Source: Amyelois transitella
Taxonomy: Eukaryota > Arthropoda > Insecta > Lepidoptera > Pyralidae
Length of the DNA: 64,000 nt
Reading direction: 5' to 3'
NCBI RefSeq assembly: GCF_032362555.1
Contig: NC_083529.1
Coordinates: 3,720,001-3,784,000, forward strand
In this document: positions 3,720 to 62,501 of the stretch, piece after piece
How positions within the stretch are numbered: the first letter of the stretch is position 1
How the letters are laid out: each line of letters opens with the position of its first letter
Position numbers and translations under genes: made by a program
The notes under the pieces: model-generated
Seen by the model: the letters and a program-made list of their open reading frames with translations, nothing else
What the model was told of the DNA's origin: nothing
Database searches by the model: none

Positions 3720-4002
3720 TACAGTATAATCTCACTAATCGGGCACGTCGATGGAGCATATCTAAAGTACGTACTACGTAATTTCTGAAAGTTTAGGTGT
3801 CTGGACTATCGCCCTTTTAACATGGAGCGATTCAATAAAAGATTATTTAGTTATTCAGTAATTACACGTGTACATGTTAATTTAATACTTTACGTACATT
3901 TAGTTGAAATGCTTTATATTTTTATTCATTACCTATGATTTTTTTCACTATAATCAAGTAATCCGAACATTCCGATTGCCGGATGAATGAGGTTATACTG
4001 TA
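3720..4002. mobile_element. MITE with pogo/Tigger-like terminal inverted repeats
   Basis: The left end TACAGTATAATCTCACTAAT is matched by the right end, whose reverse complement reads TACAGTATAACCTCATTCAT. The ends are flanked by TA dinucleotides and the element is about 283 bp with no ORF. CAGTATAAYCTC-type ends with a TA target are typical of pogo/Tigger-related elements. The family is inferred from ends only. Confidence 0.7.
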
Positions 4003-7880: not shown

Positions 7881-8170
7881 ATATTATCTTTTTTCTTATT
7901 TGCTGGCTCCTAATATATATATATATTCACTTAATATTACGACTTCGATATATGTACTTTACTTTATCGGAAGTTTCCTTAATCAAATGTTATCATAATA
8001 AAACCCATCCTTTCAAATTCATCAGTAATTGCGTAGTAAACATACAAAAAAAAACAACACAGCCAAATCGAGACTTTCCTTCTAGTCATTTGAAAATCAC
8101 ATCATAAGGCAATGTCTATATATAGTTCGGGACAATGTGGGGTGTTGTAAAGTGCCCGGCGAGACTGACC

Positions 8171-20100: not shown

Positions 20101-23100
20101 GCTTGAATTTGTAGCCTTTCGTATTTTCTTTTTGACTTTTTAAGGACCGCCGAACAGAAACTCCTGTAGCGTTTGTATGTCGAGGCCAGAACTTCGTTTG
20201 TCGGGTTCTTTTTATGTTTTTTATGTAAGTTGTCCCGGTTTTTAATGCATCGGAGAAGCCCTTTAGTTATCCACGGCTTGTGTATTATTTTCCGTTTGGG
20301 AGTTTTTGACCTATAGGAGCTGCTTTTAATGGCCAAGTAAACAGTTTCAATAAAGAGGTTGGCGGCTGCATTTGGGTTAGTACAGTTTAGGATAGGTTCG
20401 AAGTTTAGCTCAGACATGTTTTGATCTAGAACCTTAAAATCAATTCGGTATTCATTTTTGCTATGGGTGGATGTAAGGTTATATTGCATCTGTAGATTAA
20501 GGGCCACCGTGAAGTGATCTGTTAGGGTGGAGTTAATGACCAGGCAAGAAGCATCGTGTTTAGATTTTAACATCATGTGGTCATAACAGGTGCGTCCGTG
20601 GGTGGGGAGGGAGTGGCAGGAGAGCACACCATGGCCAGCGAGAATATTTAAGTAGTCATGGTGAGTTTTGTTGGGGTTGTTAGGTAATATATCAATGTTA
20701 ATGTCTCCACATAAAATAATGTTTTTAAATGTCTTTAAATTGGACAGGGCTTTATCAAGTGACTGTAAGAAATTTGAGACGTCTTTGTGAGCCGGGGGTC
20801 TGTAAATTCCTATAACACAGGTGGATTGGTCGATTTTTAATATAAGGCAGTTTGCATCTTCCACAGGGGGCTCTTCGATCGTTGCATTTAGGGATTTGTG
20901 GTAGTATATCGTGACTCCTTCGTTTTGTGTGGAATTATATAATAGAGCCCGGGTCCCGCTACTCTTTGCTTTACTAGGTATTATAAAATTAATATGAAAG
21001 AAATCACATTTCCATACTCACTGCGTCGCTGGTACTACTGGTCACAGACGAATTATCCTGGGCAGGCTTGTAATGGATAGTTTACGTTGAAAATACGATA
21101 ACAAATGATGACTCTTAAAGTAAATGTAATTTTAACATACTTTGTCGCCTAAACAATTTTTTATTCAACAAGCTCTCGTTAACAGCTACAACATATCATA
21201 GTTATTCTTTTCACTGGTTCCATATTTGTTAGTTCTTTTTTTTTATTTCAGGTATTTTTTGAAGAGCTATATATAAATAAATCTTAAAACAATGTTTTTT
21301 TATTTATATTTCTATCGCATCAAGAGGTTCGACTGTCAAAGTTTGTCTTATGGCATAAAGACGGACAGACTCTTAGTAGTAGCAGTACTTTTACTGTTTT
21401 ATAAAATATAAAAAAACAAAGGTTCAACATAAGAAATGTTCAAAGAAGTTTGAGACGCTAAACAAACTCCTTGTTATTTTCTTGTTTATTTGTGGTGCGG
21501 TGTCCAGTGAATCATGAAAATACATGGCATTCGTGTCTATCTGTGGTTAAACTATCCTGTGGTTTTATTGTATTTAAATATTTATGAATACATAAAAAAA
21601 CGTATTTATTTTAAAAAGATAAGGAAATGTTTGATATAGTTACCTTAGCAGAAGCCTGGTGTGATGCGGGAGGCGGCGCTGGAGTTATTGTCACCGAGGG
21701 CGTGATACTAGCGCCGCCTGACGAAGACGACTGAGAAAAAAAATTAAGTCTTGCTACTTTCTCCATAAAATTTATTTTTGGTATTAATATGCACAATATT
21801 TATTTTTATACAAATACTTTCTAGGTATTGTACCTGAATTTTATAGCGCTTAGCTCCGAGCAATTCTTGGATAGTTTGTGGCCTGGCCATGGAAATATAA
21901 CCAACATCTAAAAACACTTAACATATGCAAGCTGTGCTAGAATAATAAGATGGATTTTTTATTCAATGTGGTATTTAAAATTTATCTCTTACGAGTATTA
22001 ATTGGCCTTATTTCGAAGAGATGGTGGAAACAGGTAGTTTTTTACTTTTACAAAATTACAATAATTTTTAGCCCTGGAGTTCGTTTTTCAGGTTGGTTAT
22101 ATTTCCGTGAGTGCGACTAATAAAAAAAATATTTCATCACTTAAATTAAGAACCTGGATATAAAAAATCGCTAGTCTTTCGTGACATATGGCTAAGCTGT
22201 TGCTAGGGGGTTCTAGACACTGCTTAACATACTATGATCAAAATGGAAAAGTTTTTAAAAATGAAACTGGCCAGTTATCCGAATTCAAAATTGGAAGGTG
22301 GCCACATACCTGCGAGCGATACCCGCCGGCAGTGAGCGTGGCGCCGCCGGGCAGGCTGGACGTGCGCCGCGCCGCGCCGCTCGCCAGGCTGCCGGCCGCG
22401 CTGCCGGTGCCCGTGCGCTGTCACGTCATATATTATTCATTAAACTACGTCTCCCAGCAAACGTTTGTTATGCATTTTGTGAGATTGAAAAATACATGTT
22501 CGCTGATTCTCAGACCTACTCAATATGCTCACAAAATTTCATGAAGTCGGTCAAGCCGTTTCGAAGGAGTACGGGTATGAACATTTTGACACGAGACTTT
22601 TATATATAAGATTAAATCTAAATAAATACAGTGAATTACTTCTATACAATCCACCTCACTATAATTGGATGTGCAACCATGATTATGTAGCAAAACTGCT
22701 GCAATATTCATGTCTTCCCTCAAGGATCTATTAGAAGAGATTTCTATTGAAATAAGTAGCACGTTCGTACTACTATATTTTCTGTGTTAAACATTTCTGT
22801 ATATTCTTTTGTACATATAGTCACCACTATATCCCTTGTGGGGTAGACAGGTCCAAACAGTCTTGAAAAAACTGATCGGCCACGTTCAGCTTTTTGGCTT
22901 GATAACAGAATTGAGACTCAAAATACATTAGAGCGTCGGAGGTTGAATCTGTAAGATGTACAGTAAAAATGCGTGATACGCATAAAGGCACAGGTTCAAG
23001 TCCCACCTTGGCCATGTACTAGTGATTATTTTCAAAGTTATGTACGGCGGCACCACGCAGCCGCTGCCCGCCAGCAGGCTGTCTGTGTGTACATACCTTA

Positions 23101-42196: not shown

Positions 42197-45060
42197 ATGT
42201 CAGAAAATATCGAACATTATCGGAATCAAATAGTTTTAGCTAGAACCGAAATAAAGAATTTACGGTACGATGGATGTTGAATGCTTATGTGGAAACTCAT
42301 TTGTAACACGCAGTATTTAGATTTTTGTTAATTAATTTCTATATATTTCAGGCAACAGCTATCTGCACTTAAACATGAGCATCTAAAGGAAATAAGTGTC
42401 ATAAAATCAGCTCTGAACGACTTGCGGTGTACAAATTGTGCCGGAACCGGTATTTTTTTAATTATTATTTCAAAGTATCTGCCTTACGTATGTACATACG
42501 TATGCATTATCACTAGCTTACATTACTGTGCGCACAATTTATCCTTTATTCACAAATTTTGCTTCTTCTCACCTCACCTAAAAACCAATTCTTAATAATT
42601 AATGCTGATTTTTGAACCCAAGTTCTTACTGAATGTTAATTCTCAATTTAAATTTTGTGGTTGCTAAGTAGGTACATTTATTTTGCAGCTTCTACTGTGG
42701 TAAACCACACAGACAGTCTGCCAACTACATCATCTTCAAATGATGACATCTCCTTACAACCAATTGGAGTGATAGAAACTCCATTCCAGAATAAGAGGGG
42801 GGTTCCTCGACAACCGTCAGTGCTGGCCAATGCTCGGGGAACTGTTGTGATAGATCAAAAAGTGTTTAATAATCCAGAACACGCTTTGAGTGGTCTGGAG
42901 GAGTTTTCTCATATTTGGTAAATATGATTCTCATCTTCTTCCTCCTTGCTCTAGTTCCGGTTTCATCTTCACCACTCTGATCGGGAGCCCTGGGTACTCC
43001 CTAGATCATAGATCCAGAATTGGGCATGTCAGGTTGTTACACAAAGCTACACTGACCTCCAAAACCTTTACAGGAGAAATTAAAACTGAATCCTTAGCTT
43101 TCCCTCACCCCAAGAGCATCATTCAATAAACAGATCAGGTAAACTGTATTTTTTTGTAGGCTACAATTGTTCTTTAATGATGAGTGCCAGTATTTTAAGG
43201 TATACCTTAAAATAATTAAATGGCATCTGTATAAACCTGATTCTTCTCCTTCCAAGGTAGTTAAATTCACTATGGATTATGTACTTGAAGTTCCGTAAAG
43301 CATTTAAGGTGAAGGCACAATTAGTCTAAGTCGATCCATTAATGCCAGATCATATTGAAACTAAATAATTTCCAATACAATACAAGCACTAACACTTCTA
43401 AAACTGCCCTTTAGTATAGATGAAGCACTCCCGTACTTTGCAGGATAATATTCTACTTCCATGCGACAGAGTCGACCAGCGTTCCGGCGAAAGTGGCGCC
43501 GCCGCGACTCGGTGGCGAAAGGCGAGGAGTGTTCTCCACCAGATCTCCACATCGGCCATGTCCTATTGGGTTGTCGCTAGTCAAAATCCATAGCATTGAT
43601 GGTGAGTTTAAAGGTTCCTAGTAGTTTTAAAGGTGAAGTTAGTCGGAAAAGGTGAAGGGCCAGCTAAGAGTACTCTGTACCAGAAGCTTGCATGAAAATA
43701 TTAATTAATGTGGATGAAGAAGTATGCAATTATTGTGGTATCTCTGCCTGCCTTTGTGGGAAAGTGGCGGAATGCATGTTTTTAATGTAAGCTGTAGTCA
43801 TCATAATCTTGGAAATCAAGATAATGGGTATACTAAGTATATTTAAGTATTTTTATGTTAACCGTTATAATTAGTGGCAGCCGCATGTGTGAGCTGTTAG
43901 GTCTAACAAGTTAACCAAAGATCACATTTACATGACTAAACTATTCCAGGCAACAAAATCCACTTCCTCGGCGTGGACATGGTGTCTGGCACTCCAGTGT
44001 TGGACATCAAGCCTTACATTCCACAGTACGATTACCCAACAACATTCCCTGACGCCATGTCGTCTGTGACCCGTCCTCCGACTGAAGGGATCAGTGACGC
44101 AGCAGACAGCATGGCTGGTTTGGCAGTAGACGAAGAGTCTACAAGGTTGGTTTAAAACTAGTAACTATACCTTAAAAAATAGTAAAAACTTAACAGTCGT
44201 ATAACTTCTTCAACTTTACAGTACATATTTTTGATAAGAAGGAACTTCTATATTCAAACTTTAGATAAGGTGTAAAAGTATTGTGAAATTGGCTTTTGTG
44301 CTGTGTTTTTTGGCTGAAAAAAAAACTGAAAAAAAGGATGACTGATAAACATGTTTTTTATTTTATATATTTATTTAGTGTAACAGTTTTCGAAATAACT
44401 GCAACATTATTAATATCAGTCTGCTATGAGTATTTAAAATTTATTAGTTATAGGTTTTACTTTTTTTTTGTACCAATATCCTGTTATAATTTTATTTCCA
44501 GCTTAAGCCCTCGAACCTTACACCCCATCAGAATCGAGACTAGTCCCTTATCTCGATCACCTTTCGAAGACGAAGCTTCAGGTGACCACCAGTCCCTCCT
44601 GACACCAGTCTCACCATCCCCTGACTCTCCTTCTAGCATAGACCAGCTCGATGGCCCCTTCAGACAAACAAGAAGATTGGATACCGAACGAGGAGCACCC
44701 GATGGCCAAGAAAGATATACACCACCACAATCAGCATTCCTTATGAACATGACTGATGATGGAATAAGAGTAGCTCCATGGATATCAAACCCACCATCAC
44801 AGCGTTACGCAGTGAGGTTCACAGAAGATGCTCTCCAGAGGTTGAATGATCTCATCGGAGATAGAGCGAACACATTCAAAAGCAATATTGAAAGTCTACT
44901 TTCAGAGGATCCGAGATCTCATTACGTAAGGAGCAGATACCCTGATCATGAATACAGTTGTGTTTTAGAAGATTTGTCGATAAGTTGTGTGTTTGATGAG
45001 AATAGCTTCGTTTGTACGATAATGGCGGTAAGAAGCGCCGATGACTTGCAGCAGGCATGA
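42197..45060 (+). CDS. TRMO: tRNA (adenine(37)-N6)-methyltransferase TRMO, 435 aa, 6 exons
   Basis: SAM-dependent TsaA/YaeB-family enzyme that methylates t6A37 to m6t6A37 in tRNA-Thr. Exons: 42197-42264, 42352-42449, 42689-42917, 43444-43601, 43950-44145, 44502-45060 (TGA). All GT-AG; phases close. Catalytic TsaA-like domain: PIGVIETPFQNKRGVPRQP, ALSGLEEFSHIW, VAPPRLGGERRGVFSTRSPH, then RPCPIGLSLVK (usually RPNPIG), and GVDMVSGTPVLDIKPYIP. An N-terminal coiled region with CTNC and a C-terminal extension (QRYAVRFTEDALQRLNDLIG) match the animal enzyme's layout. The Cys in RPCPIG replaces the usual Asn/Ala. Length is close to the human protein. The gene is convergent with the GH31 gene. Confidence 0.95.
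42925..43065. repeat. retroposon family C copy 3
   Basis: CTTCTTCCTCCTTGCTCTAG, CGGGAGCCCTGGGTA and ATAGATCCAGAATTGGGCAT, as in 2867-2990. In TRMO intron 3. Confidence 0.6.
43640..43785 (+). mobile_element. degraded RTE 3' fragment
   Basis: AAGGTGAAGGGCCAGCTAAG, TTAATGTGGATGAAGAAGTA and TCTCTGCCTGCCTTTGTGGG follow the RTE 3' end with many changes. In TRMO intron 4. Confidence 0.65.
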
Positions 45061-45217: not shown

Positions 45218-45223
45218 ATTTTA
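45218..45223 (-). promoter_or_regulatory. candidate polyadenylation signal of the GH31 gene
   Basis: TTTATT on the plus strand (AATAAA on minus), about 225 bases past the stop. Confidence 0.35.
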
Positions 45224-45448
45224 TTGAAATAAACAAATAATTAACAACTAATTATAGATAAATCATTACGTGAAACTTATCCAGTAAATTTTTTGTCTTA
45301 CAAATACGATCGTATTATTTAAAAAATAACTTGAAAATAATATAATATTTTTTTGTATTTAATAAATGTTAATAGTTTTTCATAATACTGCATAAAGTAC
45401 TGATTGTGTATAATTAGTATACAAGTACAGTAGTATCACAAAGATTTC

Positions 45449-48400
45449 TTATGACATGTCTTTGTAAAACCTAAAATGCATGCCTGAGCCGAAATTCCCC
45501 ACGCTTTTGTTGACAATTAGCCTCATATAACGAAAACTCGAACCATTCAACACGATCTCCTTACTGTTTGCATCATGCGGGAATATCATATCTTTGGACA
45601 TTTCTTTCCATATAGCACCATCAGTGGATGTTGTGTATTTAACCTGTAAAAAGGTTCCATTGCCTGCATCTTCGCGTGGTACATATTCAACCTTCTTTAT
45701 GGCATACACTGCTCCTAAGTCAAACGACAGTTCTATATAGATACCTTTTTCAGGCTTTGCTTGACCTGCATTATCCCAGTTGGTATGCCACATACTACTA
45801 GAGTCATCATCAGTTAGGTTTTCAACTTCTTGTCCAGGTTGACTTGGCAAATTGCAAGAGACTTTAACTCCTTCTACAGTATCTCGGTAAGGATCCCCTT
45901 TGGTAGTTGTATAAATGTAATCACTCCAGCTTGAATGCCCATGGCGATTCACAGACCTAATCCTAAAAGCATGCGTCGAGTCATATTTTAAGTAGCCAAA
46001 AACGAATTTAGTTCCAATTATATTCGTGAAAAGATCCCCATCTCTTTCGATTTCATAATAGGCCGCATCGTCCACAGCCTTCCAGCTAGGACTTATAGAT
46101 GTTGGCAGCACATCTTCATCCTTTACAGCGAATTCCGATGGCACTTGCAGACTTTCTTTAAAATTACTTTCCCCATGCAATATTTCACTTTTATTAATGA
46201 AGTCTCCAACTTTTATTTGAATATGACTTTCAGTAACATCCAGTTTCTCAATTTTGATCATCAAGAACTTTTGGTTCAATTTCTCATGTCCAAATTCTTC
46301 CAGGTATGGATTAATAACATACTTATCATTGAAAAAGTACACATTAACATGATCATCAAAGTCGTCTAAAGTTTTAACTTCTGACAATTGCAAAGGTACA
46401 CCATTAACCGCCACTTTAACTTGAGAGCTAGGTGGTTTCGAAGCCATTATTCTCAATAAAGTAGTTCTCTCTTTCACCATTCGTTCATAGGAACCTTTGG
46501 TTTTCTCGATATTAATATGCAAACTACCTGGGTGATTTGTATCTGGACCTATTACGTTTATTTCCGTTTCAGCGAAATGGCCATGTAAATGAGCAGCAGA
46601 TTCACCGTCATCTTCAAAAACTTTGAAACTTGAATGCTTGTTAGCATAAATATTAAAGATTCTATTATCCCGCTTGATCTCTCCCGGATGATTGTTGGCA
46701 TTTGTCATCGGAATTATAGAACCATCTCTAACAAAGACTGGGATTTTCCAGAGGGGACACTTCATATAGTTCAAGGTTTTCCCGCCTTGATACTTTTTGC
46801 CTGTAAAAAGATCTATCCAAATTTGATTCGGATCCGGTAAATATATTCCATGACGAACAAATTCGCCTTTGTGGCTTTCCTCATTGTATACGGGTGCTAC
46901 TAAAATGTTTGGACCCCACATAAACTGGTATTGCGAGTGTATTGAGTACGATAGTTTCTCGTGAGCAAACTCTAGAAACATTGCTCTTATCATCGGCAGA
47001 TCTTCGGTTGCCTCGTGTCCAATAGTGTAGTTGTATGGCATTAGCATCGATTTGAGCTTCAAATATGCCCTATTGATGGCTGTAGCCTCATTGTCAAAAC
47101 TGAAAGGAGTTTTCTGCTTCCAACCCCAACCATCCATGTTTAGTTGTAATGGAGTAAAAGCTTTCCATTGAAAATCTCTTACATTGATATTCTTTACACC
47201 ACCTTTATAAATGCCATCCATATCTGATCCGATGATCGGGATTCCAGAGAGGCCTGAACCAATATAGGTAGGGATATGGAAACGAATGTATTCCCACTCG
47301 CCTCCTGATTGATCACCAGTCCAAATACCGGAATGTCTTTGAGTACCAGCCCATCCATCAACCATTATGATCATCTTTCTGTGGCGCTTTGTTGCTTTCT
47401 CAAATATTTCAGCAGCATGCTCCACAGCACTCATAGCAAAGGAATATCCATTTCCAATCCAAGCAACATCGCACTTTAGAGCTACGACACCAGCCTTACT
47501 CACTTCTTTGTGTAAATCTCTATCTCCTTTTATGGGATGCTCTGGATCTTTTGGTTCTAGATTAGATTCAGTCCATAATGCTACATGAACACCATGTTCT
47601 CTTGCATATTCAGCGAACTTTTTAAGATTTTCAATGTCTCCAGCTAAAGAATCAGTTTGTCCATAACCTGAGCCATATCCGTCATTGGGAATGAACCAAC
47701 CTATCGGCATATCATGCAATTGGTATCTGTCTACCATAGCCCGTGCTGAAAATTGATAGTTGTCTTTCTCACCATTTAATGATTCCAGAATAGGATTAGG
47801 TTTACCATGTATTTGGTCAGGTTGAAACTTCTTATAGTACTTCCCATCTTCAAACAAAATAGCCAAAAAAGTGTCCGCATCGACCTCAACCCAGTAATCG
47901 CGATTGAATGTGTTTAAATGTGCTTGGTAGAAAGCATACTCAGGCATGAAAGTAGGGTTTCCAGTCAGTTCATAATAATCTTTTAAAATGTCTCGGGGCT
48001 GAGAATTTATGAAGTAAAATGCGTCGAAATCTGATCCCTTATGAATCGTGGTGATAAAATGTGTAGATTCGGATCCGAAATCGTATATGCCAGGCTGCCA
48101 CGTGTTTCTCAGTACTCCATACCCATGCGTAGACCAATAGAATGGACATGGGGAGGATACGCCGCCGTCCACCCAATTATTAGTATTGACAATTTTGATA
48201 ACTTCCCCTTTATGGGAAAATCTCCCATTCTGCATCCCCCCTCCGAAGAAGTACTCGTGTTCGTTTTGATGTAGCGTCTGTTTGGCTTTGTTGTCGACGT
48301 ATGATAGCGGTTGTGACTCATGCATTACATATTTGTTGGTTCTCTCGTCGTGTACTTTCATTGTTGCATGTATCTTATCAAATATTATTGCTATTTTGTT

Positions 48401-48697
48401 TGTACGAATTACGAAACTAGACTCATTGTCATCGATAATGGAATCTAGGTGATACTTTTTATCGTACTCCTCGACAGATTTAACGTTTATTTTGGCAGTG
48501 TCCGTAGGTTCCATAGGTACCGGATAGTCCAGGAAAATTCCAGTTGGAGACATATAAAACCTGAAAACATGGCTGTTCAGGATGTACAGTCTCGCTTGTT
48601 CGCCAGTGCCATATTTAATTTCGTAATATTTATCGGATTTTTCTATTGTTTCGATTTTCCCAACAATTCCCCGTTTATTTAGATCCATGTTACCCAT
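45449..48697 (-). CDS. GH31 glycoside hydrolase with C-terminal discoidin domain, bacterial-type, intronless coding region (1082 aa)
   Basis: A retaining alpha-glycosidase-type enzyme of family GH31. Domains in order: N-terminal beta-sandwich (about 1-250), (beta/alpha)8 barrel (about 255-600), proximal/distal beta domains, a fibronectin III-like stretch (about 860-945) and an F5/8-type C carbohydrate-binding domain (about 945-1082). Probable nucleophile Asp410 in LKCDVAWIGNGYSF and acid/base Asp462 in GIWTGDQSGGEWEY; also IPIIGSDMDGI and MDGWGW. No signal peptide at MGNMDLNKRG. The start is supported by an in-frame TAA nine codons upstream. A splice acceptor (CTCTTTTCAG, exon from 48728) lies in the 5'UTR, so it looks expressed as an insect gene. 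The barrel and discoidin pairing resembles Gram-positive bacterial enzymes. A bacterial GH31 gene in Lepidoptera has been reported. It lies between TRMO and PSMA5, which argues against contamination. The substrate is not evident. Confidence 0.93.
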   Translation of the reverse strand: MGNMDLNKRGIVGKIETIEKSDKYYEIKYGTGEQARLYILNSHVFRFYMSPTGIFLDYPVPMEPTDTAKINVKSVEEYDKKYHLDSIIDDNESSFVIRTNKIAIIFDKIHATMKVHDERTNKYVMHESQPLSYVDNKAKQTLHQNEHEYFFGGGMQNGRFSHKGEVIKIVNTNNWVDGGVSSPCPFYWSTHGYGVLRNTWQPGIYDFGSESTHFITTIHKGSDFDAFYFINSQPRDILKDYYELTGNPTFMPEYAFYQAHLNTFNRDYWVEVDADTFLAILFEDGKYYKKFQPDQIHGKPNPILESLNGEKDNYQFSARAMVDRYQLHDMPIGWFIPNDGYGSGYGQTDSLAGDIENLKKFAEYAREHGVHVALWTESNLEPKDPEHPIKGDRDLHKEVSKAGVVALKCDVAWIGNGYSFAMSAVEHAAEIFEKATKRHRKMIIMVDGWAGTQRHSGIWTGDQSGGEWEYIRFHIPTYIGSGLSGIPIIGSDMDGIYKGGVKNINVRDFQWKAFTPLQLNMDGWGWKQKTPFSFDNEATAINRAYLKLKSMLMPYNYTIGHEATEDLPMIRAMFLEFAHEKLSYSIHSQYQFMWGPNILVAPVYNEESHKGEFVRHGIYLPDPNQIWIDLFTGKKYQGGKTLNYMKCPLWKIPVFVRDGSIIPMTNANNHPGEIKRDNRIFNIYANKHSSFKVFEDDGESAAHLHGHFAETEINVIGPDTNHPGSLHINIEKTKGSYERMVKERTTLLRIMASKPPSSQVKVAVNGVPLQLSEVKTLDDFDDHVNVYFFNDKYVINPYLEEFGHEKLNQKFLMIKIEKLDVTESHIQIKVGDFINKSEILHGESNFKESLQVPSEFAVKDEDVLPTSISPSWKAVDDAAYYEIERDGDLFTNIIGTKFVFGYLKYDSTHAFRIRSVNRHGHSSWSDYIYTTTKGDPYRDTVEGVKVSCNLPSQPGQEVENLTDDDSSSMWHTNWDNAGQAKPEKGIYIELSFDLGAVYAIKKVEYVPREDAGNGTFLQVKYTTSTDGAIWKEMSKDMIFPHDANSKEIVLNGSSFRYMRLIVNKSVGNFGSGMHFRFYKDMS

Positions 48698-48728
48698 GGC
48701 TGCGCGATCTGTCGACAGTGAAGTTTAT
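48698..48728 (-). other. 5'UTR exon segment of the GH31 gene with splice acceptor
   Basis: The minus strand reads TCTCTTTTCAG/ATAAACTTCACTG and 31 bases later the start ATG. The acceptor has a good pyrimidine tract, implying an upstream non-coding exon. Confidence 0.55.
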
Positions 48729-48979
48729 CTGAAAAGAGAATACTTAGGTGATTAGTAAGTGCCAAATTATATATTTTCTACTACATACACTTGTTATTAT
48801 TTAATGAGGGATGTGACCGCAAGGCGCGCCTAGACCGAGTAGGTACTTAGTCTCTAGAATGTAAGAAAACTACCAAAATAATGCCTCCAGCAAACCGCAT
48901 CACTGAAAAACCTCCGAAATAAAACATGCAAAGGTGATATTACAAATATCACGCTAAGATGAAAATAAAGGTAGGTACT

Positions 48980-49017
48980 ACATTGTGACCGAGGGTTATA
49001 ACCCTCGGTCACAATGT
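48980..49017. repeat. perfect 38-bp palindrome upstream of the GH31 gene
   Basis: Each half is 19 bases, ACATTGTGACCGAGGGTTA and its exact reverse complement, with TATA at the centre. It is about 280 bases upstream of the GH31 start codon. Confidence 0.95.
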
Positions 49018-50825: not shown

Positions 50826-50910
50826 ATCTAAGCAGTGGAATAAAATGTAGCCTAGTTAGTATGTTAAACATACATTGCAATGTTTAATATAAATGTACTA
50901 AAAACCAAAA

Positions 50911-51310
50911 AATAAAAAAATAGGTAAAAAAACTTTTTAAGTTAAACGGTTTTATGTTAAACATACATTGCAATGTTTAATATAAATGTACTAAAAACCA
51001 AAAAATAATAAAATAGATACAGTCGTGGGAATTATAAACATATGCATAGACTAGACTAAAATAAAACCGTGGGGCACGTCAATTGTCTACAAATTATAGA
51101 CTTAATGTGCGATAGAAGAATCGTTTAATTCGTCGTTAGGCAGTTGGCCCACGGTTTTATTTTAGTCTAGTCTATGCATATGTTTATAATTCCCACGACT
51201 GTATCTATTTTATTATTTTTTGGTTTTTAGTACATTTATATTAAACATTGCAATGTATGTTTAACATAAAACCGTTTAACTTAAAAAGTTTTTTTACCTA
51301 TTTTTTTATT
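50911..51310. mobile_element. fold-back element: 163-bp inverted arms, 74-bp spacer
   Basis: The left arm 50911-51073 is, as far as I can read, an exact reverse complement of the right arm 51148-51310 (outer ends AATAAAAAAATAGGT; inner ends AAATAAAACCGTGGG). Part of the arm (the block with CATACATTGCAATGTTTAAT) also occurs once more, directly, at about 50862-50915. No ORF. Confidence 0.9.
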
Positions 51311-52180: not shown

Positions 52181-55100
52181 ATGTTTCTGACCCGATCTGA
52201 GTACGACCGTGGTGTGAACACCTTCAGCCCAGAAGGGAGGCTGTTCCAAGTGGAATATGCCATTGAAGCTATTAAGCTGGGTTCCACAGCCATTGGAATA
52301 TGCACTTCGGAAGGAGTAGTTTTGGCTGTGGAGAAAAGGATTACGTCCCCTTTGATGGAGCCGACTACTATCGAGAAGATCGTAGAAGTTGATCGGCATA
52401 TCGCTTGCGCCGTATCGGGGCTGATGGCGGATTCTAGGTAAAGACCCAAATCCAAACTGACAAGCTTCCTTAACCTTAACAAGCACAAGTATGCAGTGAT
52501 CGTGGTAAATGAAAAGATAAAGTCTCTACTTCCTCTCTGGGGGAGAGGGTTCATTTTATGTATGTAATCTGGAAACCTTGCACAGTCAATGATTCAAGAG
52601 AATGTCAGTATAGTGCTCTTGTATATTTTGAATTAGTTGTGTGATTGGCTCATTTCTTATGGCGAAGGAATTATTAATCAGTTAAGTGCCCAACACAAAC
52701 ATTAAAGAAAATTCTACTTTATGAATTCAGCGCAGTAGATATTTTTATAATAAAATTCCTACAGCACATCTCAAGTGTCAATTTGAGGGTACACTTATTA
52801 GCTGGGTGCTATACCTAATTATTTGTTCTCTCTTTACACTTTTCAACTTGCCAACTCTTGAATAAATACAAATACAAAGGGAGAAAGAAAACTTTTATCC
52901 TGAAAAATTATAAAAATGGTATCTATTAATAGTAAACAACTATTTATCAACATTAAAATTGAACTTGACTAATGACTTGCACAATTAAAGATGTTATGTA
53001 ATTTCTTATAGAACACTGGTAGAGCGTGCCCGTGTAGAGTGCCAAAACCACTGGTTTGTGTACAACGAGCGTATGAGTGTGGAGTCATGCGCGCAGGCTG
53101 TCTCCAACCTCGCAATCCAGTTTGGGGATAGCGACGACGATAGCGGCACAGCCATGTCGAGACCATTTGGTGTAGCTGTCATGTTTGCAGGTTACAATTA
53201 ACTGTTTTCTAGTAATTTTTTAACTCATCTGTTTTCGATAGGCAATACATAAGTTGTTACAGGTTGGAGCACAAAACTTAATATAAAGTTTATATAAAAT
53301 TTTAGCCATTAATTTACCAAAACTAAAATTCAGTTGGTTTAATTAGAATACCTAATTTAATGCTAATGACAGATTACACAGATTAGTGTGCACTGGAATT
53401 GCATAATTAAATTCCTCCTGCACTATACAAATATAGGACAACACAGTGTGGGCAGAGATTCCATCTGTACATGGTCGATTTCCACCATGGGATTTGGAAT
53501 TCTCTCCCTGTATCTCTCTTGCCCCATACAAACAACTTAGGATTTTCAACATAAGAGTGACTAAGCATTATTTGAGCTTGTGTGCACCACCTTAGGACTC
53601 ATCTTGCTTACCACCTAACAGATTGAAGTCAATCGCACAAATTATTACATGTAAAACTAAATACCTCATTTAGTTACATATTCAGGGAATATGGAAAACT
53701 ATATAAGTTTTGTACAATTTTTAAAAGAGCTGACATAGTAATAATCACTATGTAGAATAGAATAGAATAGAATAGAATAGAATAGAATAGATTTATTTTC
53801 AAAATTGGATACAAGGTATCACTTATTGACGTCACATAACTTAAATCTAATTATAACTACTACCGCTTCCAAAGCGCATGTGTAGAAGAAGCGGCGGAAC
53901 AAACTACACTGCAGCATTTTCATAGGACGTCAATTTACAAATATAGATCTCTTAAATCTAAAGGAACGAATTTGCCGCCGTAAGGTTTAGACGTGTTTTG
54001 TATCGCTCCTTAAAAAAATAATTCTTCCACGGACAAACTTGTACATAAATTCTCGCAAACTATACATTATTTGGATAAATATCACGTGTGCTTTCACTCG
54101 ATAAACACAAAACAATAAAAACAATAGTGGACGTGAATATTTTGAAGTGCTAATTGGTTATTTACTCGACTCGATAAGCCGCCGACATCGTCCAGCGAGC
54201 TGCGCGTGAGTCATCATCGCACACAACATAGCAGCGACTGCCCCGTACCACGTTCTCGTCGCGCGAGCCGGACTCCCCTGTACTACGCTGCCGCCCGGCG
54301 AGTGTCGCCGCATCGACTGCCCGGTACCACGTTTTCGCCGTGCTAGCGATACAACGGTCGCTTTTGATCGAGGTTTGGTGGTAGAGGGATACACAATGTC
54401 TTCTACGGCAAAAAATCATCTATGTGCTGGCTGTCGTCAGGTGATAAGCGGCCGATTTATCTGCTGCTCTGTCACTTCTTGCATACAAATGTACGATCTA
54501 ACATGTGCCAAAGCTGCCAGTCTCACGACTAATGAATTAAAAGTATGGATCTGCCCAGAATGCCGTGCAACGAGGAGAAAAACTGGAGACACCTCAACAC
54601 CACTCCGCCCATCAACGTACGCGGTTCCCGAGTCTGAAAATGTTACAATGAGGAAGAAGTCCTCGCTTAAACCCCAGGACACCCAGGATGTCTCAATCAC
54701 GGAATCTATTAAAAAACTGACTGATGAAATTCGGGGTATGCGGTCAGATATGGATGTGTTTCGTACAGAGGTAACCACTCGTTTTGAAGACTTTTCAGCT
54801 AACCTGCTAGAAAAAGGGAACAGGATTGAGATTTTAGAGGAAAAGCAGGAAATTCTAGAACGAAGGAATTTAGATCTCGAAATCACAGTTCAGTCGCTTC
54901 AAGAGCGTATTGCTTTGATGTCCCAACAATCCCTCAGAAATGAAGCTGAGATCCTGGGAATCCATGAAGTTGCTGGTGAGGAGCCTTTACACTTGGCTTT
55001 AGTTACCGCTTCAAAGATAGGGCTGGATTTGGAGGCAAGCGACATCGATGAGGCCACCCGCGTTGGCCCCAAACGTAAGTCCACGAATCAAGCTTCTGAA

Positions 55101-58100
55101 GAGAACCGCCTTCCTCGTCCCATAGTGGTCCGCTTTACTACAAAGGCCAAGCGAGATAACTTCATATCTGCTGCTAAATCTAGAAGAACAGTGGAGAGCA
55201 AAGATATTGTTGAAAACGGACCTGTCCGCAAGATTTACGTAAATGAAAGACTGACAGCTGAGAATCGGCAGTTGTTTCGTGCAGCGAGAGCACGAGCTCA
55301 GGAGAGCGGTTTTAAATTCTGCTGGGTCAAAAATGGTTCAATTTACATCAAAAAACACGAAAGAAGCTCGGCATTACGAATTACATCTACAAACGACATT
55401 AATTGTTTGGGGGGGCCCGAGGCCGATGTCGCGCGTGCATCCATGGGACCGTCATACGCAGGACCCGTCAATCACACTTAGGGGGGCACCGCTCATGGGC
55501 CCTCTTCTGGTTAACATACCTACATTTAATTTCGCCATGTTAAGGCTTCTGTCGTTTTTAATGTCGTTTATAATTATAATTTTAATTCTACTTGTAACAG
55601 ATACGCCTAACGCTAAACTGTCTAACGCTAAATTTCTCAAATCTAAATATCCTTTTAATGACGTCAATTCCTGTCTCTACGAGTTAGTTATATTTCAATG
55701 TATGGCAGCATTGATCAAAACAATACAAAAATTAATTTTTTGGAGCCGGTTACGGCCACCTTAGAGTTGCTTTCTGAAATCGATGAATCTTTTAATATAT
55801 CATGCCATACTCTTGATTTTCCTGAACAATGTGAGAGACTGTTACCAACAAATAGTATCAAAGTACTGAATATAAATATAAGAAGTCTACAAAAAAACTT
55901 CAACGCATTCCTAATAGTATTAGCGAGGCTTAACATTAATTTTGACGCAATTGTATTTGCAGAATGCTGGCTTACTGATATATCCGTAATTCCCCAGATA
56001 ACCGGCTATTTATCGTTTCGTACAAGTAAGTTCATTAATAAGTGTGGTGGTGTAGTAATGTACATAAAGAGTTGTTGGTCGCCAGTTTTTACGGAATTAC
56101 CGCTTGATGAAGCTAATTGTGTGCTAGCTGACGTACCGAATGTATTCTCTATTTTAGGTATCTATAGGTCACCATCTTTCAAAGATACAACTCCATTTCT
56201 ACATTCTTTGGAATCATTAGTGGTAAATGTAAAGCAAAAAGCGCGTCTGATTATAACTGGTGATATTAATATTTGTGAACAAGGTCTCCAGGATAATAAT
56301 GATGATAAAATATCAGAATATACTTGTCTTATGGCCCAGTTGGGTTTTGTGCCAGCTATCACTGTCCCGACTAGAATTAATACTTGCCTAGACCATGTTT
56401 ACGTACCAAATCAGGGATCAACCACATCGATAGTATGTCGCACTGAGCTGACGGACCACCATGTAGAAATGGCGGCCGTTACTTTTAGCACTCCTGATAC
56501 AAGGACTACTAAGAATCGCTATCGCAGCAAAATCGATTACAAAGGTCTGACTGAGGATATTGACTCAATTGACTGGAAGGAAATTCTCGAAGGTACATGC
56601 CCAATTGATACTACAGAAAAATTCGATACTCTGTTAAGAGATGCTGTAGCTAAGCATACTAAGTTAGTTAAAGTGAGTCACTCGCAATTTAACATTCAGC
56701 CTTGGATGACACCAGGACTCATTAGGTGCGCAATTCACAAAGATAAACTTCATGCACAGGTTAGAAAAAATCCCGATAAAAAAGAGATTTATATAAGGTA
56801 TAGAAATTTTTATCAGAATCTCCTCAGAAAGCTCAAGTCGGATCATGACTCCAAACTGTTAAATGATAACCTGAACAATCCCAAGAAACTCTGGCAAAAC
56901 ATAGGCACAATTACACATACTCGTAAGCAGAAATCCAATTCATGCGATCTTATCAAAATTAAAAATTCCCCCTCGGAATCTCTGAACCACTGCAATGACT
57001 ATTTTTCTACAATTGGACAGACTCTGGCTAACAAAACTTTAACTGCAAGAAACGAAACTGAAGATGACTTATCTGCGCGCGTCAGACTAGCAGTGTCGGG
57101 TCCTTTTGAATCATTTTTTCTTGGTCCAACTGATGCTGACGAAGTTCTGTCTCGTATACAAAAGCTAAAATCCGATAGCGCACCCGGTCTGGATGGTATC
57201 ACAAATAGAATAATTAAATTAATAGGAAAAAACATTGCAGTTCCTTTGGCACATATTTTTAATCTTAGCTTTTCAACGGGCGTTTTTCCAGATATCTGGA
57301 AGACTGCAGCAGTGTCCCCGATCCATAAAAATGGTGCTAAGAACGAGCCAGTAAACTACAGACCTATCTCTCTCCTCAGTTCCTTGTCAAAAATTCTGGA
57401 AAGTCTAGTAAATACAAGGTTGATTTCCTTCCTGGACAAGCACAACTTAATAACAGAATCGCAGTTTGGATTTAGGAGGAACAAATCTACAGAGGATGCC
57501 ATTTCTCTTCTGGTGAATGAGGTCGCTTCGCATCTGGATAACGGGCGAGCTTGTATCGGCGCTTTTCTTGATTTAGCAAAGGCGTTTGACACTGTGTCTA
57601 TCAAAATACTTCTAAAAAAGCTAGAGATAATGGGTGTGAGAGGTATAGCCCTGAAATGGTTCACTAGCTATCTGAGTGATAGATATCAATGCGTGAGAGT
57701 GGAATCTGTACTAAGTCAACGCAAATCCGTACGTTTTGGAGTACCACAAGGGAGTATTTTGGGTCCCACACTATTTTTGGCCTATATAAATGATCTTCCC
57801 TCACTAGCAACTCCCCATAGTTCCATCATTTGCTACGCGGACGATACAGCAATTATATTCTCTGCTGAAAACTGGAAGAAGTGCCATGAAAAGGTTGATA
57901 AGGGCCTGTCTCAGGTTTCTAAGTGGTTGAGCGAAAACCTTCTTACCCTTAATGTCAAAAAAACCAAATTGATTTCTTTTTATAAAACAGCGATTTCTGC
58001 TCCGACACAATTTCCAAAAATCAAAATTCACAAATGTGCGGATTGCTTGACTTGTACAGATCCTAATTGCGAGGAGGTGGAATGGTCGCAGACAATTCGT

Positions 58101-59858
58101 TACCTGGGTATAACGCTCGATGAAAGGCTTAATTTCGCCGCTCACATTGACGTTGCGAGCGGAAGAGTCCGGAAATTGATTCATACCATGAAATTGCTAA
58201 GAGATGCAGCAAATTTCCAGTTGTTAAAGAGTGTGTATCTGGCCCTTTGTCAATCCATTTTAACGTATTGCATATCGGTGTGGGGTAGTGCAGCAATGAC
58301 ATACCTCATCAAACTGGAGCGTGCACAAAGATCAGTGCTAAAAGTAATGTTGCGAAAGTCTTTCCGACACCCTACTTCAGAGGTATATAAAGAGGCACAA
58401 GTCCTGAGTGTACGAAAACTTTACATCCTTAAGGTAACACTGGATAAACATAAACAAGTACAGAAACTGCCCAACTACAATGACTTGCTCCGAAGGCGAG
58501 TTTTTAGAGTGGAGCAACCTCTTGTCAATTCCGTGTTTGCACACCGGTTTGAACCATTCATTTCAAATTTTCTTTATAATAAAATGGTACGTCTTTGTAA
58601 CATAAAAGATGTGAGCCCTGGACTATGTAAACACATGGTTAGAGCTCTTTTGATGAACTGGGACTACGTTCAGACTGAGTTGATGTTGACGACTTTGAAG
58701 TAAACTTTTGATGCGTTGTCTTTCCCTATTTCCTTTTATTTTTATAAAATGTATAGTTTAAAATGGTAAACTAATAAACCTTATTGTTATTGGCTTTTTG
58801 TAAAACTCTGTTAATCGTATTTTTGGCTGCCACAGGACAGGCTTGCAGCCTAGTGTGGAGCCAACTGGCAAATTTTCAATGTAATAGTGTAAGTTATAAT
58901 AATAAATCATTCATTCATTCATTCAATCATTCATTCATTCATTCATTCATTCATTCAAATCGTGGACGAATGCACATTGTCTACATTAAAAAACATGTAT
59001 GAATGTAGACTGATGTAGTTATACAAGATGTAGCAATGAAATAATTTTTGCAATTATTTCTCACAGGTATTGACGAGAAAGGTCCCCAGCTGTTCCACAT
59101 GGACCCCAGTGGTACGTTCGTGCAGTATGATGCCAAGGCCATCGGTTCTGGTAGCGAGGGCGCTCAGCAGAGTTTGAAGGTAATAAAAGCATACTCCATT
59201 ATTACCAATATCTGTCTTTATTTATGTATCAATGTTTTTGCAACTTTAGAATGGGACCAGTGGCATCTTTCTGCAGAACCTTGACAAGAAGGATAAAGTT
59301 CAGAAAGATGATGATGATGCTGTTGACATGAACTCACTGATAGATCTCAATGTCTAACATACATACATATGGTCACGTCTATATCCCTTGCGGGGTAGAC
59401 AGAGCCAACAGTCTAGAAAAGCAGACTCAATGTCTAAATCTCTTAAATTATAAGAAACACATCACTATATAATCTTACTTAGTTATGAATCAATGTGAAG
59501 GTAATAAAATTAGTGTTGGTAGTTAATTATAGCAAACATAGGCCTCGAGATATTGTTGTGGAGGGTACAATTAGGAACATGCTTAGATGAGAAAGAGTAA
59601 TCTAAACTTACCTGATGAATAGATGAATTACATTCATGAGAATGTTTTTATAGTTAAAGTATATTTGTTTTACAGGAAGTATATCACAAGTCCATGACCT
59701 TGAAAGAAGCAATAAAGTCTGCACTCACGATTCTGAAGCAAGTTATGGAGGAGAAACTGTCGGAAAACAACGTGGAGGTGGTCACCATGACTCCGGCATC
59801 TATGTTCCATATGTTCACGAGGGAACAGTTGGCTGAGGTTATCAAGGACATTCCTTGA
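52181..59858 (+). CDS. PSMA5: proteasome subunit alpha type-5, 243 aa, 4 coding exons
   Basis: An alpha-ring subunit of the 20S proteasome core; structural, with the N-terminal tail gating the pore. Exons: 52181-52437, 53012-53190, 59067-59179, 59676-59858 (TGA). Phases close to 244 codons. Signature: [20 protein letters not shown] and [19 protein letters not shown], the alpha-type N-terminal segment with the VEYAIEAIK motif; then [62 protein letters not shown]. Length is near that of human PSMA5. Intron 2 (53191-59066) is swollen to 5.9 kb by a complete LINE. Intron 3 contains an exon-like segment (59250-59357). AATAAA at 59907 follows. It is convergent with the glutathione peroxidase gene. 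Confidence 0.96.
52490..52565 (+). mobile_element. RTE extreme 3' end, degraded
   Basis: GTATGCAGTGATCGTGGTAA then TCTCTGGGGGAGAGGGTTCA and TTTTATGTATG. In PSMA5 intron 1. Confidence 0.6.
53754..53960 (-). repeat. family B copy with (TAGAA)n tail
   Basis: (TAGAA)n at 53754-53793, then ACAAGGTATCACTTATTGAC, AGAAGAAGCGGCGGAACAAA and AGGACGTCAATTTACAA. The pentanucleotide run is the 3' tail when the element is read on the minus strand. Confidence 0.7.
54396..55481 (+). CDS. LINE ORF1: PHD-like finger, coiled coil, FP25K-like C-terminal domain (361 aa)
   Basis: RNA-binding/chaperone protein of the retrotransposon RNP. Residues about 10-57 form a PHD-type zinc finger (CAGC...CC...C...C...CPEC), in which the usual His is replaced in MYDLTC. 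Residues about 105-185 are a heptad-rich coiled coil ([20 protein letters not shown]). The C-terminus (about 270-345) has [35 protein letters not shown] and [15 protein letters not shown], typical of the FP-protein-like domain of many insect LINE ORF1s. The ATG at 54396 is the first in frame. No defects seen. Confidence 0.88.
   Translation: MSSTAKNHLCAGCRQVISGRFICCSVTSCIQMYDLTCAKAASLTTNELKVWICPECRATRRKTGDTSTPLRPSTYAVPESENVTMRKKSSLKPQDTQDVSITESIKKLTDEIRGMRSDMDVFRTEVTTRFEDFSANLLEKGNRIEILEEKQEILERRNLDLEITVQSLQERIALMSQQSLRNEAEILGIHEVAGEEPLHLALVTASKIGLDLEASDIDEATRVGPKRKSTNQASEENRLPRPIVVRFTTKAKRDNFISAAKSRRTVESKDIVENGPVRKIYVNERLTAENRQLFRAARARAQESGFKFCWVKNGSIYIKKHERSSALRITSTNDINCLGGPEADVARASMGPSYAGPVNHT
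55698..58703 (+). CDS. LINE ORF2: endonuclease/reverse transcriptase (1001 aa)
   Basis: APE-type endonuclease (about residues 50-290): [17 protein letters not shown] (catalytic Asn), VFAECWL (Glu), [45 protein letters not shown]. Reverse transcriptase (about 480-780): [73 protein letters not shown] near residue 713. A C-terminal Cys-rich segment [12 protein letters not shown] and a conserved WGSA...[11 protein letters not shown] follow. All catalytic residues are present and the frame is intact, so this copy may still be active. Closely related to the truncated LINE at 17766-21005. Confidence 0.93.
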   Translation: MYGSIDQNNTKINFLEPVTATLELLSEIDESFNISCHTLDFPEQCERLLPTNSIKVLNINIRSLQKNFNAFLIVLARLNINFDAIVFAECWLTDISVIPQITGYLSFRTSKFINKCGGVVMYIKSCWSPVFTELPLDEANCVLADVPNVFSILGIYRSPSFKDTTPFLHSLESLVVNVKQKARLIITGDINICEQGLQDNNDDKISEYTCLMAQLGFVPAITVPTRINTCLDHVYVPNQGSTTSIVCRTELTDHHVEMAAVTFSTPDTRTTKNRYRSKIDYKGLTEDIDSIDWKEILEGTCPIDTTEKFDTLLRDAVAKHTKLVKVSHSQFNIQPWMTPGLIRCAIHKDKLHAQVRKNPDKKEIYIRYRNFYQNLLRKLKSDHDSKLLNDNLNNPKKLWQNIGTITHTRKQKSNSCDLIKIKNSPSESLNHCNDYFSTIGQTLANKTLTARNETEDDLSARVRLAVSGPFESFFLGPTDADEVLSRIQKLKSDSAPGLDGITNRIIKLIGKNIAVPLAHIFNLSFSTGVFPDIWKTAAVSPIHKNGAKNEPVNYRPISLLSSLSKILESLVNTRLISFLDKHNLITESQFGFRRNKSTEDAISLLVNEVASHLDNGRACIGAFLDLAKAFDTVSIKILLKKLEIMGVRGIALKWFTSYLSDRYQCVRVESVLSQRKSVRFGVPQGSILGPTLFLAYINDLPSLATPHSSIICYADDTAIIFSAENWKKCHEKVDKGLSQVSKWLSENLLTLNVKKTKLISFYKTAISAPTQFPKIKIHKCADCLTCTDPNCEEVEWSQTIRYLGITLDERLNFAAHIDVASGRVRKLIHTMKLLRDAANFQLLKSVYLALCQSILTYCISVWGSAAMTYLIKLERAQRSVLKVMLRKSFRHPTSEVYKEAQVLSVRKLYILKVTLDKHKQVQKLPNYNDLLRRRVFRVEQPLVNSVFAHRFEPFISNFLYNKMVRLCNIKDVSPGLCKHMVRALLMNWDYVQTELMLTTLK
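59250..59357 (+). other. possible alternative terminal exon of PSMA5 (36 codons)
   Basis: After an acceptor-like TGCAACTTTAG the sequence reads [18 protein letters not shown], then [17 protein letters not shown] and TAA. The phase (0) matches the PSMA5 exon 3 donor at 59179. It would replace the normal last exon. It resembles a real acidic protein C-terminus, but I do not recognise it. A truncated SINE-A has since inserted at its stop codon. Confidence 0.35.
59346..59437 (-). repeat. 68-bp SINE-A 3' end with 12-bp target-site duplication
   Basis: Perfect CTCAATGTCTAA repeats at 59346-59357 and 59426-59437 enclose a strongly 5'-truncated SINE-A, whose TATG tail lies on the left. This fixes which end of the SINE is 3'. 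Confidence 0.92.
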
Positions 59859-61389: not shown

Positions 61390-61903
61390 TCACAAGTACT
61401 TAACCAAAACGGGCTCCAACTCCATCGGGTCGACATTAGGCCCGAACCGTTCAACAGGGACGCCGTTCTTGTCGATGATAAATTTAGAGAAATTCCACTT
61501 AATAAAGTCGCCAAAAGTACCACTTTGTACTCTCTTTAAGAACTTCCACAAGGGATGTGTATTTTCACCGTTGACATCGATTTTTTCGAATACATCGAAT
61601 TTGACGCCGCGTTCTTTGGCAAAATTGAATATTTGTTTAGGGCTCCCAGGCTCTTGGCCGTTGAATTGGTTACAAGGGAATGCTAGGATTCTCACACCTT
61701 TGTTCGCATACTTTTCATACAACTCGTTCAGCTGTTGATAGTTTTTGTCTGTGAGCCCACATTGGGAAGCAACGTTGACAATGACTAGAACATAGCCTTT
61801 GTATTTGTCCAGTTTGACTTCGTTTCCTTGAATGTCGCGGACTGTAAAACCGTATACAGTTGTGGCTGTCTCGTCATTCTCTTGTTTTTCTGGTTCTTGC
61901 TTA
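61390..61903 (-). CDS. GPx: glutathione peroxidase (phospholipid hydroperoxide type, Cys form), main exon; first exon unresolved
   Basis: A thiol peroxidase reducing (lipid) hydroperoxides, in insects usually with thioredoxin. The exon from acceptor TTCTCTTTCAG (exon start 61903) to TGA at 61390 encodes 171 residues. Segments: TTVYGFTVRDIQGNEVKLD, GYVLVIVNVASQCGLT (peroxidatic Cys in place of Sec), LAFPCNQFNGQEPG (second Cys and Gln), FDVFEKIDVNG and KWNFSKFIIDKNG (Trp/Asn). The catalytic tetrad Cys-Gln-Trp-Asn is complete. The exon needs two bases from an upstream exon and has no in-frame ATG, so the N-terminus is elsewhere. One phase-compatible candidate is 62551-62502 ([11 protein letters not shown]...), but it overlaps the JHEH last exon. 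Confidence 0.92.
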
Positions 61904-62501
61904 CTGAAAGAGAAGAAATATAAGTAAATCAAAATAAAAATCTCCAAAATAATACAGTAAAAACTTCTTTAATTTTTTTTTTAAATTGAATTATGACATT
62001 AACTAGAAAACATTATCTGCCAGTCGACAAAGATCTTTGTTGTCATACCAATCAGAGTGATATTGAAAAGTAATGTTAAGTTTATCTTATAGATAGTGCA
62101 ACAAAGGAGTTTAAACAATGTTACAAATTGATATCAGTATTACATTGGTGTCAAATAAATATTTAAGCGACAAAGGGACGGCAAGTTAGCACAAAAGGAA
62201 AAGAGTTTATATCTGTTATGTATGGATACTCATATCATAAATTGATGACGTTATCTTACACAAACTTCGACTGACATACTTGAAAATAAATTTTCTGTTT
62301 TCTTTGTCTTAATTATGATAAGCGACACAGTGGACATACAAAAAGATGTCATTGCATAAAGAAACGGTGAAAGAGTATGTACTAAAAGTTGAATAGTATA
62401 AGTTGAAGAATTGGAATAAAATTGCCGCATGTAGCGTAATGTGCTGAGACAGTCGTATACGGTTGCACCATACAATACTCTCATCGAGGCAACCAATATA
62501 C

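What the first reader, a model, noticed from the sequence alone, without database searches (positions are those of the whole stretch)
45449..48728. Bacterial-type GH31 glycosidase with discoidin domain, embedded and apparently domesticated in an insect locus
A 1082-codon intronless coding region has the domain order of Gram-positive bacterial GH31 enzymes (GH31 barrel, FN3-like, F5/8 type C). It sits between two ordinary spliced insect genes, TRMO and PSMA5, so it is not contamination. Both catalytic Asp residues are present and there is no frameshift. The start codon is preceded by a good splice acceptor, suggesting a eukaryotic 5'UTR exon was gained. From memory, an ancient bacterial (Enterococcus-like) GH31 transfer into Lepidoptera has been described; this is probably that gene. 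The lack of a signal peptide is notable for a presumed digestive enzyme.
Basis: partly seen in the sequence, partly recalled or inferred. Interest (0 to 1): 0.75.

Follow-up and report, generated by a model that had tools for sequence, protein, structure and literature searches.

The report
Moth gene borrowed from bacteria
This is an intact bacterial sugar-cutting enzyme gene sitting in an insect chromosome, almost certainly the already described gene that moths and butterflies took from a lactic-acid bacterium, and its likely job is to clip N-acetylgalactosamine off proteins rather than to digest starch.

Summary
Window 45449-48697 (-) is one uninterrupted 1082-codon ORF with GH31 and F5/8-type-C domains, between TRMO (ends 45060, convergent) and PSMA5 (coding from 52181, divergent), single-copy in the window. 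The closest solved relative is the Enterococcus faecalis GH31 alpha-N-acetylgalactosaminidase (6M76/6M77; 1189 bits against 167 for the best other GH31); both catalytic Asp are kept. This matches the published lepidopteran GH31 transfer (Li 2011; Wheeler 2013), and a paper states that the silkworm GH31_18 member removes alpha-GalNAc from peptide (PMC11790493). So family and function are known; alpha-glucan or isomaltoside digestion is unlikely. My additions: the bacterial leader, dockerin, FIVAR repeats and anchor-like tail are gone; an in-frame stop just 3' of the predicted acceptor means the 5' exon cannot add a signal peptide; the gene belongs to an Enterococcus-like clade, but whether inside or beside Enterococcus is unresolved (AU p 0.012-0.016 full length, 0.297 barrel only). 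Host and orthology could not be tested directly: no insect sequences were available. Known; the apparently cytosolic role is the open question.

The parts
45449..48697 (-). GH31 coding sequence of bacterial origin, 1082 codons plus stop, no intron
47468..47470 (-). codon of catalytic nucleophile D410 (motif KCDVAW)
   Evidence: protein position; aligned to the residue that is Asn/Ala in chains 7F7R/7F7Q
47312..47314 (-). codon of acid/base candidate D462 (motif TGDQ)
   Evidence: protein position; the acid/base role is recalled from general GH31 knowledge
45491..45844 (-). F5/8 type C (discoidin, CBM32-like) domain, protein 952-1069; the protein ends 13 residues later, where bacterial relatives such as E. 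caccae go on to a dockerin
48698..48728 (-). predicted 5' UTR part of the coding exon; holds an in-frame TAA (48725-48727) right after the acceptor
48729..48745 (-). predicted splice acceptor with pyrimidine tract; branch-point-like TACTAAT just upstream
   Evidence: not confirmed by transcripts
45220..45225 (-). AATAAA polyadenylation signal about 223 bases after the stop; an ATTAAA starts at 45363
43424..45060 (+). neighbour TRMO exons (TrmO_N and TrmO_C), convergent with the GH31 gene, 388 bases between the two stop codons
52181..52438 (+). neighbour PSMA5 first coding exon, divergent from the GH31 gene

Best explanation
The ORF is a lepidopteran orthologue of the described bacterial GH31 transfer, a GH31 subfamily 18 alpha-N-acetylgalactosaminidase (silkworm BGIBMGA013995 / BmGH31 kind). 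Shown here: intact gene, insect neighbours, bacterial nearest kin, retained catalytic Asp pair, 135 of 147 otherwise invariant positions kept, no signal-peptide-like start and no anchoring parts. Inferred: it is transcribed from an insect promoter with a 5' UTR exon, made in the cytosol, and removes alpha-GalNAc linked to Ser/Thr of glycopeptides by the retaining two-Asp mechanism, perhaps in turnover of O-glycosylated material rather than in gut digestion.
For: PDB sequence search: E. faecalis alpha-N-acetylgalactosaminidase (entries 6M76, 6M77, 7F7Q, 7F7R) 1186-1190 bits over residues 11-938, against 167 bits for the best other GH31. 60% identity to that enzyme over residues 12-733. Tree: insect row within a six-row set with E. 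faecalis, E. caccae and three unnamed Lactobacillales, support 96/95, 94/95 with a corrected E. faecalis row, 93/93 and 97/96 with other rows or columns. The insect protein keeps 135 of 147 columns that are invariant in 34 bacterial rows (two distant rows, L004 and L091, left out before the count; columns with fewer than 28 rows filled not counted). Published: lepidopteran GH31 transfer with microsynteny, intronless BmGH31 of 1076 aa, dN/dS 0.062, expression in testis and lower elsewhere (PMC3606386); BGIBMGA013995, 52.8% to E. faecalis V583 (PMC3252269); GH31_18 members including B. mori remove alpha-GalNAc from peptide (PMC11790493); GH31_18 has no other activity reported so far (PMC13096917). 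Bacterial context fits GalNAc: nagA and GalNAc PTS genes beside E. caccae's copy; nagA and an AgaS-family gene beside a Lactobacillus copy.
Against: No lepidopteran sequence was available here, so orthology rests on description, not alignment. 12 otherwise invariant positions are changed, among them T409C next to the nucleophile and Q377E, so specificity could have shifted. One characterized GH31_18 enzyme was active on pNP-alpha-GalNAc but on none of the native substrates named (PMC13096917), and others act on mucin or peptide but not on the single-residue Tn antigen, so the natural substrate is uncertain. Cytosolic location is inferred from a hydropathy scan only.
Confidence: 0.92

Rival explanations
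1. A digestive alpha-glucosidase or isomaltase taken from bacteria.
For: GH31 domain annotation alone is compatible; a 2017 review lists the gene under assimilation of plant carbohydrates (PMC5704228, passages).
Against: The nearest solved group is the alpha-GalNAcases at 1189 bits; other GH31 chains reach 167 bits or less and their best stretches cover only part of the protein. No signal-peptide-like start. Wheeler 2013 notes low gut expression in silkworm. Silkworm member stated to be an alpha-GalNAc-removing enzyme.
Confidence: 0.04
2. Bacterial contamination or a chimeric assembly.
For: The protein is of bacterial type and its coding region is intronless.
Against: TRMO ends 388 bases away on one side and PSMA5 coding begins 3.5 kb away on the other in one continuous sequence; over its full length the protein is 54-55% identical to the nearest bacterial copies found and lacks their leader and anchor parts; a PCR-proven integrated orthologue with an opposite-strand insect neighbour is published.
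Confidence: 0.02
3. An ordinary insect GH31 gene (glucosidase II, lysosomal or maltase type) that has diverged.
For: Shares the GH31 fold.
Against: Animal GH31 chains in the PDB score 167 bits or less against 1189 for the E. faecalis enzyme; no introns in the coding region; bacterial domain order including F5/8C.
Confidence: 0.01
4. A gene whose enzyme activity has been lost or changed since transfer (a protein kept for binding or another function).
For: 12 changes at positions invariant in 34 bacterial rows, one beside the nucleophile; long branch (0.92).
Against: Both catalytic Asp and most invariant positions kept; silkworm member stated to be active.
Confidence: 0.06

Closest known systems
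Lepidopteran GH31 lateral transfer (BmGH31 / BGIBMGA013995, DpGH31, PxGH31; Wheeler 2013, Li 2011)
   Same: Intronless bacterial-type GH31 with F5/8C (and FN3) domains, 1076 aa in silkworm and 1082 here, in an insect locus, an opposite-strand insect gene close by, nearest bacterial kin Enterococcus, about 53-55% identity
   Different: Host of this window unknown; TRMO and PSMA5 could not be matched to the gene names in the paper; a 5' UTR exon is predicted here
Bombyx mori alpha-N-acetylgalactosaminidase, GH31 (Ikegaya 2021)
   Same: Same gene family; function inferred to be the same
Enterococcus faecalis GH31 alpha-N-acetylgalactosaminidase (PDB 6M76, 6M77, 7F7Q, 7F7R)
   Same: 60% identical over residues 12-733 and 55% over 12-938, same catalytic Asp, same domain order up to the F5/8C domain
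   Different: The insect protein has no signal-peptide-like start, dockerin, FIVAR repeats or anchor-like tail (judged against the E. caccae copy, and the E. faecalis fragment L003)
Short GH31_18-like proteins of Lactobacillus (L008) and unnamed Lactobacillales genomes (L104-L107, L112)
   Same: No signal-peptide-like start; end right after the F5/8C domain
   Different: 31-44% identical; grouping the insect protein with L008, L104 and L106 is weakly disfavoured (AU p 0.0403)

Membership tests
GH31 subfamily 18 alpha-N-acetylgalactosaminidase | GH31 barrel with the two catalytic Asp | tested here: met
   D410 and D462 are invariant in the 20-row alignment
GH31 subfamily 18 alpha-N-acetylgalactosaminidase | Groups with characterized members apart from other GH31 | tested here: met
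   1189 bits against 167 for the best other GH31; grouped with the E. faecalis enzyme. No known other GH31 subfamily was put in the trees, so separation rests on the scores
GH31 subfamily 18 alpha-N-acetylgalactosaminidase | Releases alpha-GalNAc | not testable with these tools
   needs an enzyme assay; stated for the silkworm member in PMC11790493
Lepidopteran GH31 lateral transfer | Bacterial nearest kin in the Enterococcus-like clade | tested here: met
   six-row set, support 96/95, 94/95, 93/93, 97/96; exact place unresolved
Lepidopteran GH31 lateral transfer | Nested within Enterococcus (published donor E. faecalis or close kin) | tested here: inconclusive
   rejected on full length, AU p 0.0115 and 0.0163; not rejected on the barrel, p 0.297
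Lepidopteran GH31 lateral transfer | Embedded next to insect genes, opposite-strand neighbour close by | tested here: met
   TRMO ends 388 bases from the GH31 stop, convergent
Lepidopteran GH31 lateral transfer | Intronless coding region of about 1076 aa | tested here: met
   1082 aa in one open frame
Lepidopteran GH31 lateral transfer | Host is a lepidopteran; sequence aligns with the named orthologues | not testable with these tools
   no insect sequence collection and no host genome
Secreted, wall-anchored bacterial GH31_18 enzyme | Signal peptide and anchoring modules | tested here: not met
   the N- and C-terminal parts of E. caccae's protein gave only chance-level matches in the window (best E 0.74)

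The most novel reading that the evidence does not exclude
The transferred gene became a cytosolic alpha-N-acetylgalactosaminidase in an animal: the secretion and anchoring parts were lost (before or after transfer), the new 5' exon is non-coding, and the enzyme now trims O-GalNAc glycopeptides inside cells, with a donor that branched off before the Enterococcus species now known.
Probability: 0.25. Interest if true: 0.45.

Novelty: already known. Interest (0 to 1): 0.2.

Why it matters
It is one more clean case of a bacterial gene kept intact in an insect for a very long time. The useful corrections are that the right assay substrate is alpha-GalNAc on peptide, not starch-type glucans; that the missing signal peptide cannot be rescued by the predicted 5' exon; and that the claim that E. 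faecalis itself was the donor is not settled when more bacterial relatives are included.

Tried and rejected
Two viral contig scans, with the protein and with an alignment, found no relatives. Plasmid and phage records gave mostly distant GH31 hits, the nearest being Enterococcus fragments filed under a phage name. The AlphaFold2 model was poor in the catalytic core (mean pLDDT 77.1, pTM 0.52, much of 410-533 below 50), so I drew nothing from it and ran no fold search. GC content does not mark the gene as foreign (GC 0.393, GC3 0.367, window GC 0.377). Counts of shared derived residues among the six nearest rows were too few to place the donor. The test of insect row plus L008 alone did not finish. 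Grouping the insect row with G270's copy was not rejected (AU p 0.126); grouping it with E. faecalis, E. caccae and G116 was (p 0.0154). I had seen the tree before choosing these groups, though insect plus Enterococcus is the published hypothesis. A paper search for lepidopteran knockouts of such genes found none (0 papers with all four terms). PMC12193397 and PMC9784016 mention alpha-N-acetylgalactosaminidase genes in Lepidoptera (passages), but I could not tell whether they mean this gene or another family, so I did not rest on them.

Full report
What is there. The minus strand of 45449-48697 holds one open frame of 1082 codons without a stop. Simulated sequence with the window's first-order base statistics never gave a stop-free stretch above 195 codons in 100 runs. 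Pfam finds the GH31 N-terminal, barrel, third and DUF5110 parts and an F5/8 type C domain. The FN3 part is not called by Pfam here but aligns with that of the E. faecalis enzyme. The window holds no second copy (tblastn at E up to 1).

Setting. TRMO ends at 45060 on the plus strand, convergent with the GH31 gene; PSMA5 begins its coding at 52181 on the plus strand, divergent from it. TrmO_N passes its Pfam cut-off; TrmO_C falls just short. A poly(A) signal AATAAA lies about 223 bases after the GH31 stop. This is an insect-type locus, though I could not name the host: no genome is held and no insect collection is available. That it is a moth or butterfly is inferred from the match to the published transfer.

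What it is related to. In the PDB the three best distinct sequences, covering entries 6M76, 6M77, 7F7R and 7F7Q, are the E. faecalis GH31 alpha-N-acetylgalactosaminidase, at 1186-1190 bits over residues 11-938; the next group, maltase-glucoamylase, has 167 bits. Over residues 12-733 the identity is 60% to E. faecalis and E. caccae, 57-58% to three unnamed Lactobacillales and 53% or less to the other rows compared (59.8% for E. faecalis repeated). In whole genomes, 3 of 105 of E. caccae's family and 30 of 395 drawn from its order carried a match at E up to 1e-100.

Tree. With 23 rows the insect protein falls in a six-row set with E. faecalis, E. caccae, G059 (same family as E. caccae by the search), G116 and G270 (one family, not found in the search of E. 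caccae's family); support 96/95. With the E. faecalis row corrected for one letter it is 94/95; with short Lactobacillales forms added 93/93; on the barrel alone 97/96. Its place within that set is open (65/34). Holding it together with E. faecalis and E. caccae is rejected on the full length (AU p 0.0115; 0.0163) but not on the conserved barrel alone (p 0.297). The insect branch is long (0.92) and its amino-acid make-up differs, so a pull towards the base of the set cannot be excluded. The published statement that E. [quoted passage not shown] an Enterococcus-like lactic-acid bacterium is as far as I can go.

Function. D410 and D462 line up with the bacterial catalytic Asp; the first is the residue that is Asn and Ala in chains 7F7R and 7F7Q, the acid/base role of the second is recalled. 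Of 147 columns invariant in 34 bacterial rows, the insect protein keeps 135; L004 and L091 were left out before that count as too distant. The 12 changes include T409C beside the nucleophile and Q377E, which could tune specificity. A published comment says that the GalNAc enzyme has a hydrophobic pocket for the N-acetyl group (PMC9491548, passage); I could not check that pocket residue by residue. Bacterial neighbours fit GalNAc use: nagA (above cut-off), a GalNAc PTS IIB (above cut-off) and an AgaF-like IIA (120 bits, cut-off 130) near the E. caccae copy; nagA (above cut-off) and an AgaS-family gene (423 bits, cut-off 529) near the Lactobacillus copy. PMC11790493 says in its text that GH31_18 members, the silkworm's among them, remove alpha-linked GalNAc from peptide (passage), citing Rahfeld 2019, Miyazaki 2022 and Ikegaya, Miyazaki and Park 2021; the last I have seen only as a reference (not held). 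[quoted passage not shown]

Remodelling after or before transfer. E. caccae's protein of 1879 aa has a hydrophobic leader, then GH31, FN3, F5/8C, a dockerin and six FIVAR repeats, and ends in a hydrophobic, lysine-rich tail. The insect protein begins ten residues before the conserved part and ends 13 residues after the F5/8C domain. Its highest 11-residue hydropathy in the first 70 residues is 0.78, against 2.2-2.5 in the leaders of E. caccae, G059, G116 and G270 (a crude measure, not a signal-peptide predictor). Short forms built the same way exist in a Lactobacillus (L008) and in unnamed Lactobacillales genomes (L104-L107, L112), so loss of export parts also happened in bacteria; grouping the insect protein with L008, L104 and L106 is weakly disfavoured (AU p 0.0403).

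The 5' exon. The acceptor TACTAATCACCTAAGTATTCTCTTTTCAG ends at 48729; the next bases read A-TAA in the frame of the ATG at 48697. If this acceptor is used, no upstream exon can add coding sequence in this frame, so none can provide a signal peptide. A weaker acceptor-like CGACAG lies between the TAA and the ATG, so the point needs transcripts. Donor-like sites lie at 49235 and 49504.

What is known. Wheeler, Redding and Werren 2013 (PMC3606386; [quoted passage not shown] Li 2011 (PMC3252269, passages) lists the same silkworm gene with E. faecalis V583 as best hit at 52.8%. A 2017 review (PMC5704228, passages) says the function was not yet characterized and lists it under plant carbohydrates; the later statement in PMC11790493 supersedes that. 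So this is an already known gene in, most likely, one more lepidopteran. My interest score is low for that reason; the remaining open question is why an animal keeps what looks like a cytosolic alpha-GalNAcase.

Noticed in passing
window 50860-51310: Large near-perfect inverted repeat: arms 50911-51076 and 51145-51310 (166 nt, 99% complementary, 68 nt between), plus arms 50860-50926 and 51202-51268 (67 nt, 97%); looks like a young hairpin or foldback element between the GH31 gene and PSMA5.
   Followed up: no
window 48980-49017: Perfect 38-base palindrome (two 19-base arms, no spacer) upstream of the predicted acceptor, inside the predicted 5' intron if the donor is at 49235 or 49504.
   Followed up: no
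window 4911-7883 (-), 18285-21017 (-), 54210-58703 (+): Three long reverse-transcriptase frames (990, 910 and 1013 aa) of LINE-like elements, the last preceded by a 423-aa frame with a Baculo_FP_2nd domain.
   Followed up: partly
window 61393-61968 (-): Glutathione peroxidase coding stretch (Pfam GSHPx, 138 bits).
   Followed up: no
L008 829-7352: GH31_18-like gene without signal-peptide-like start in an uncultured Lactobacillus, next to nagA, an AgaS-family isomerase and a GntR-type regulator (the last two below NCBIfam cut-offs): an apparent intracellular GalNAc-release locus.
   Followed up: partly
L098 about 3657-3723: One close bacterial relative (G116, 57% over residues 8-757) has a break of frame, with the rest of the protein (726-1079) in another frame.
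   Followed up: no
PQ520176.1 (L003) and PQ520313.1: Enterococcus GH31 fragments filed as partial genome of Enterococcus phage IME_EF3, probably host DNA carry-over.
   Followed up: no
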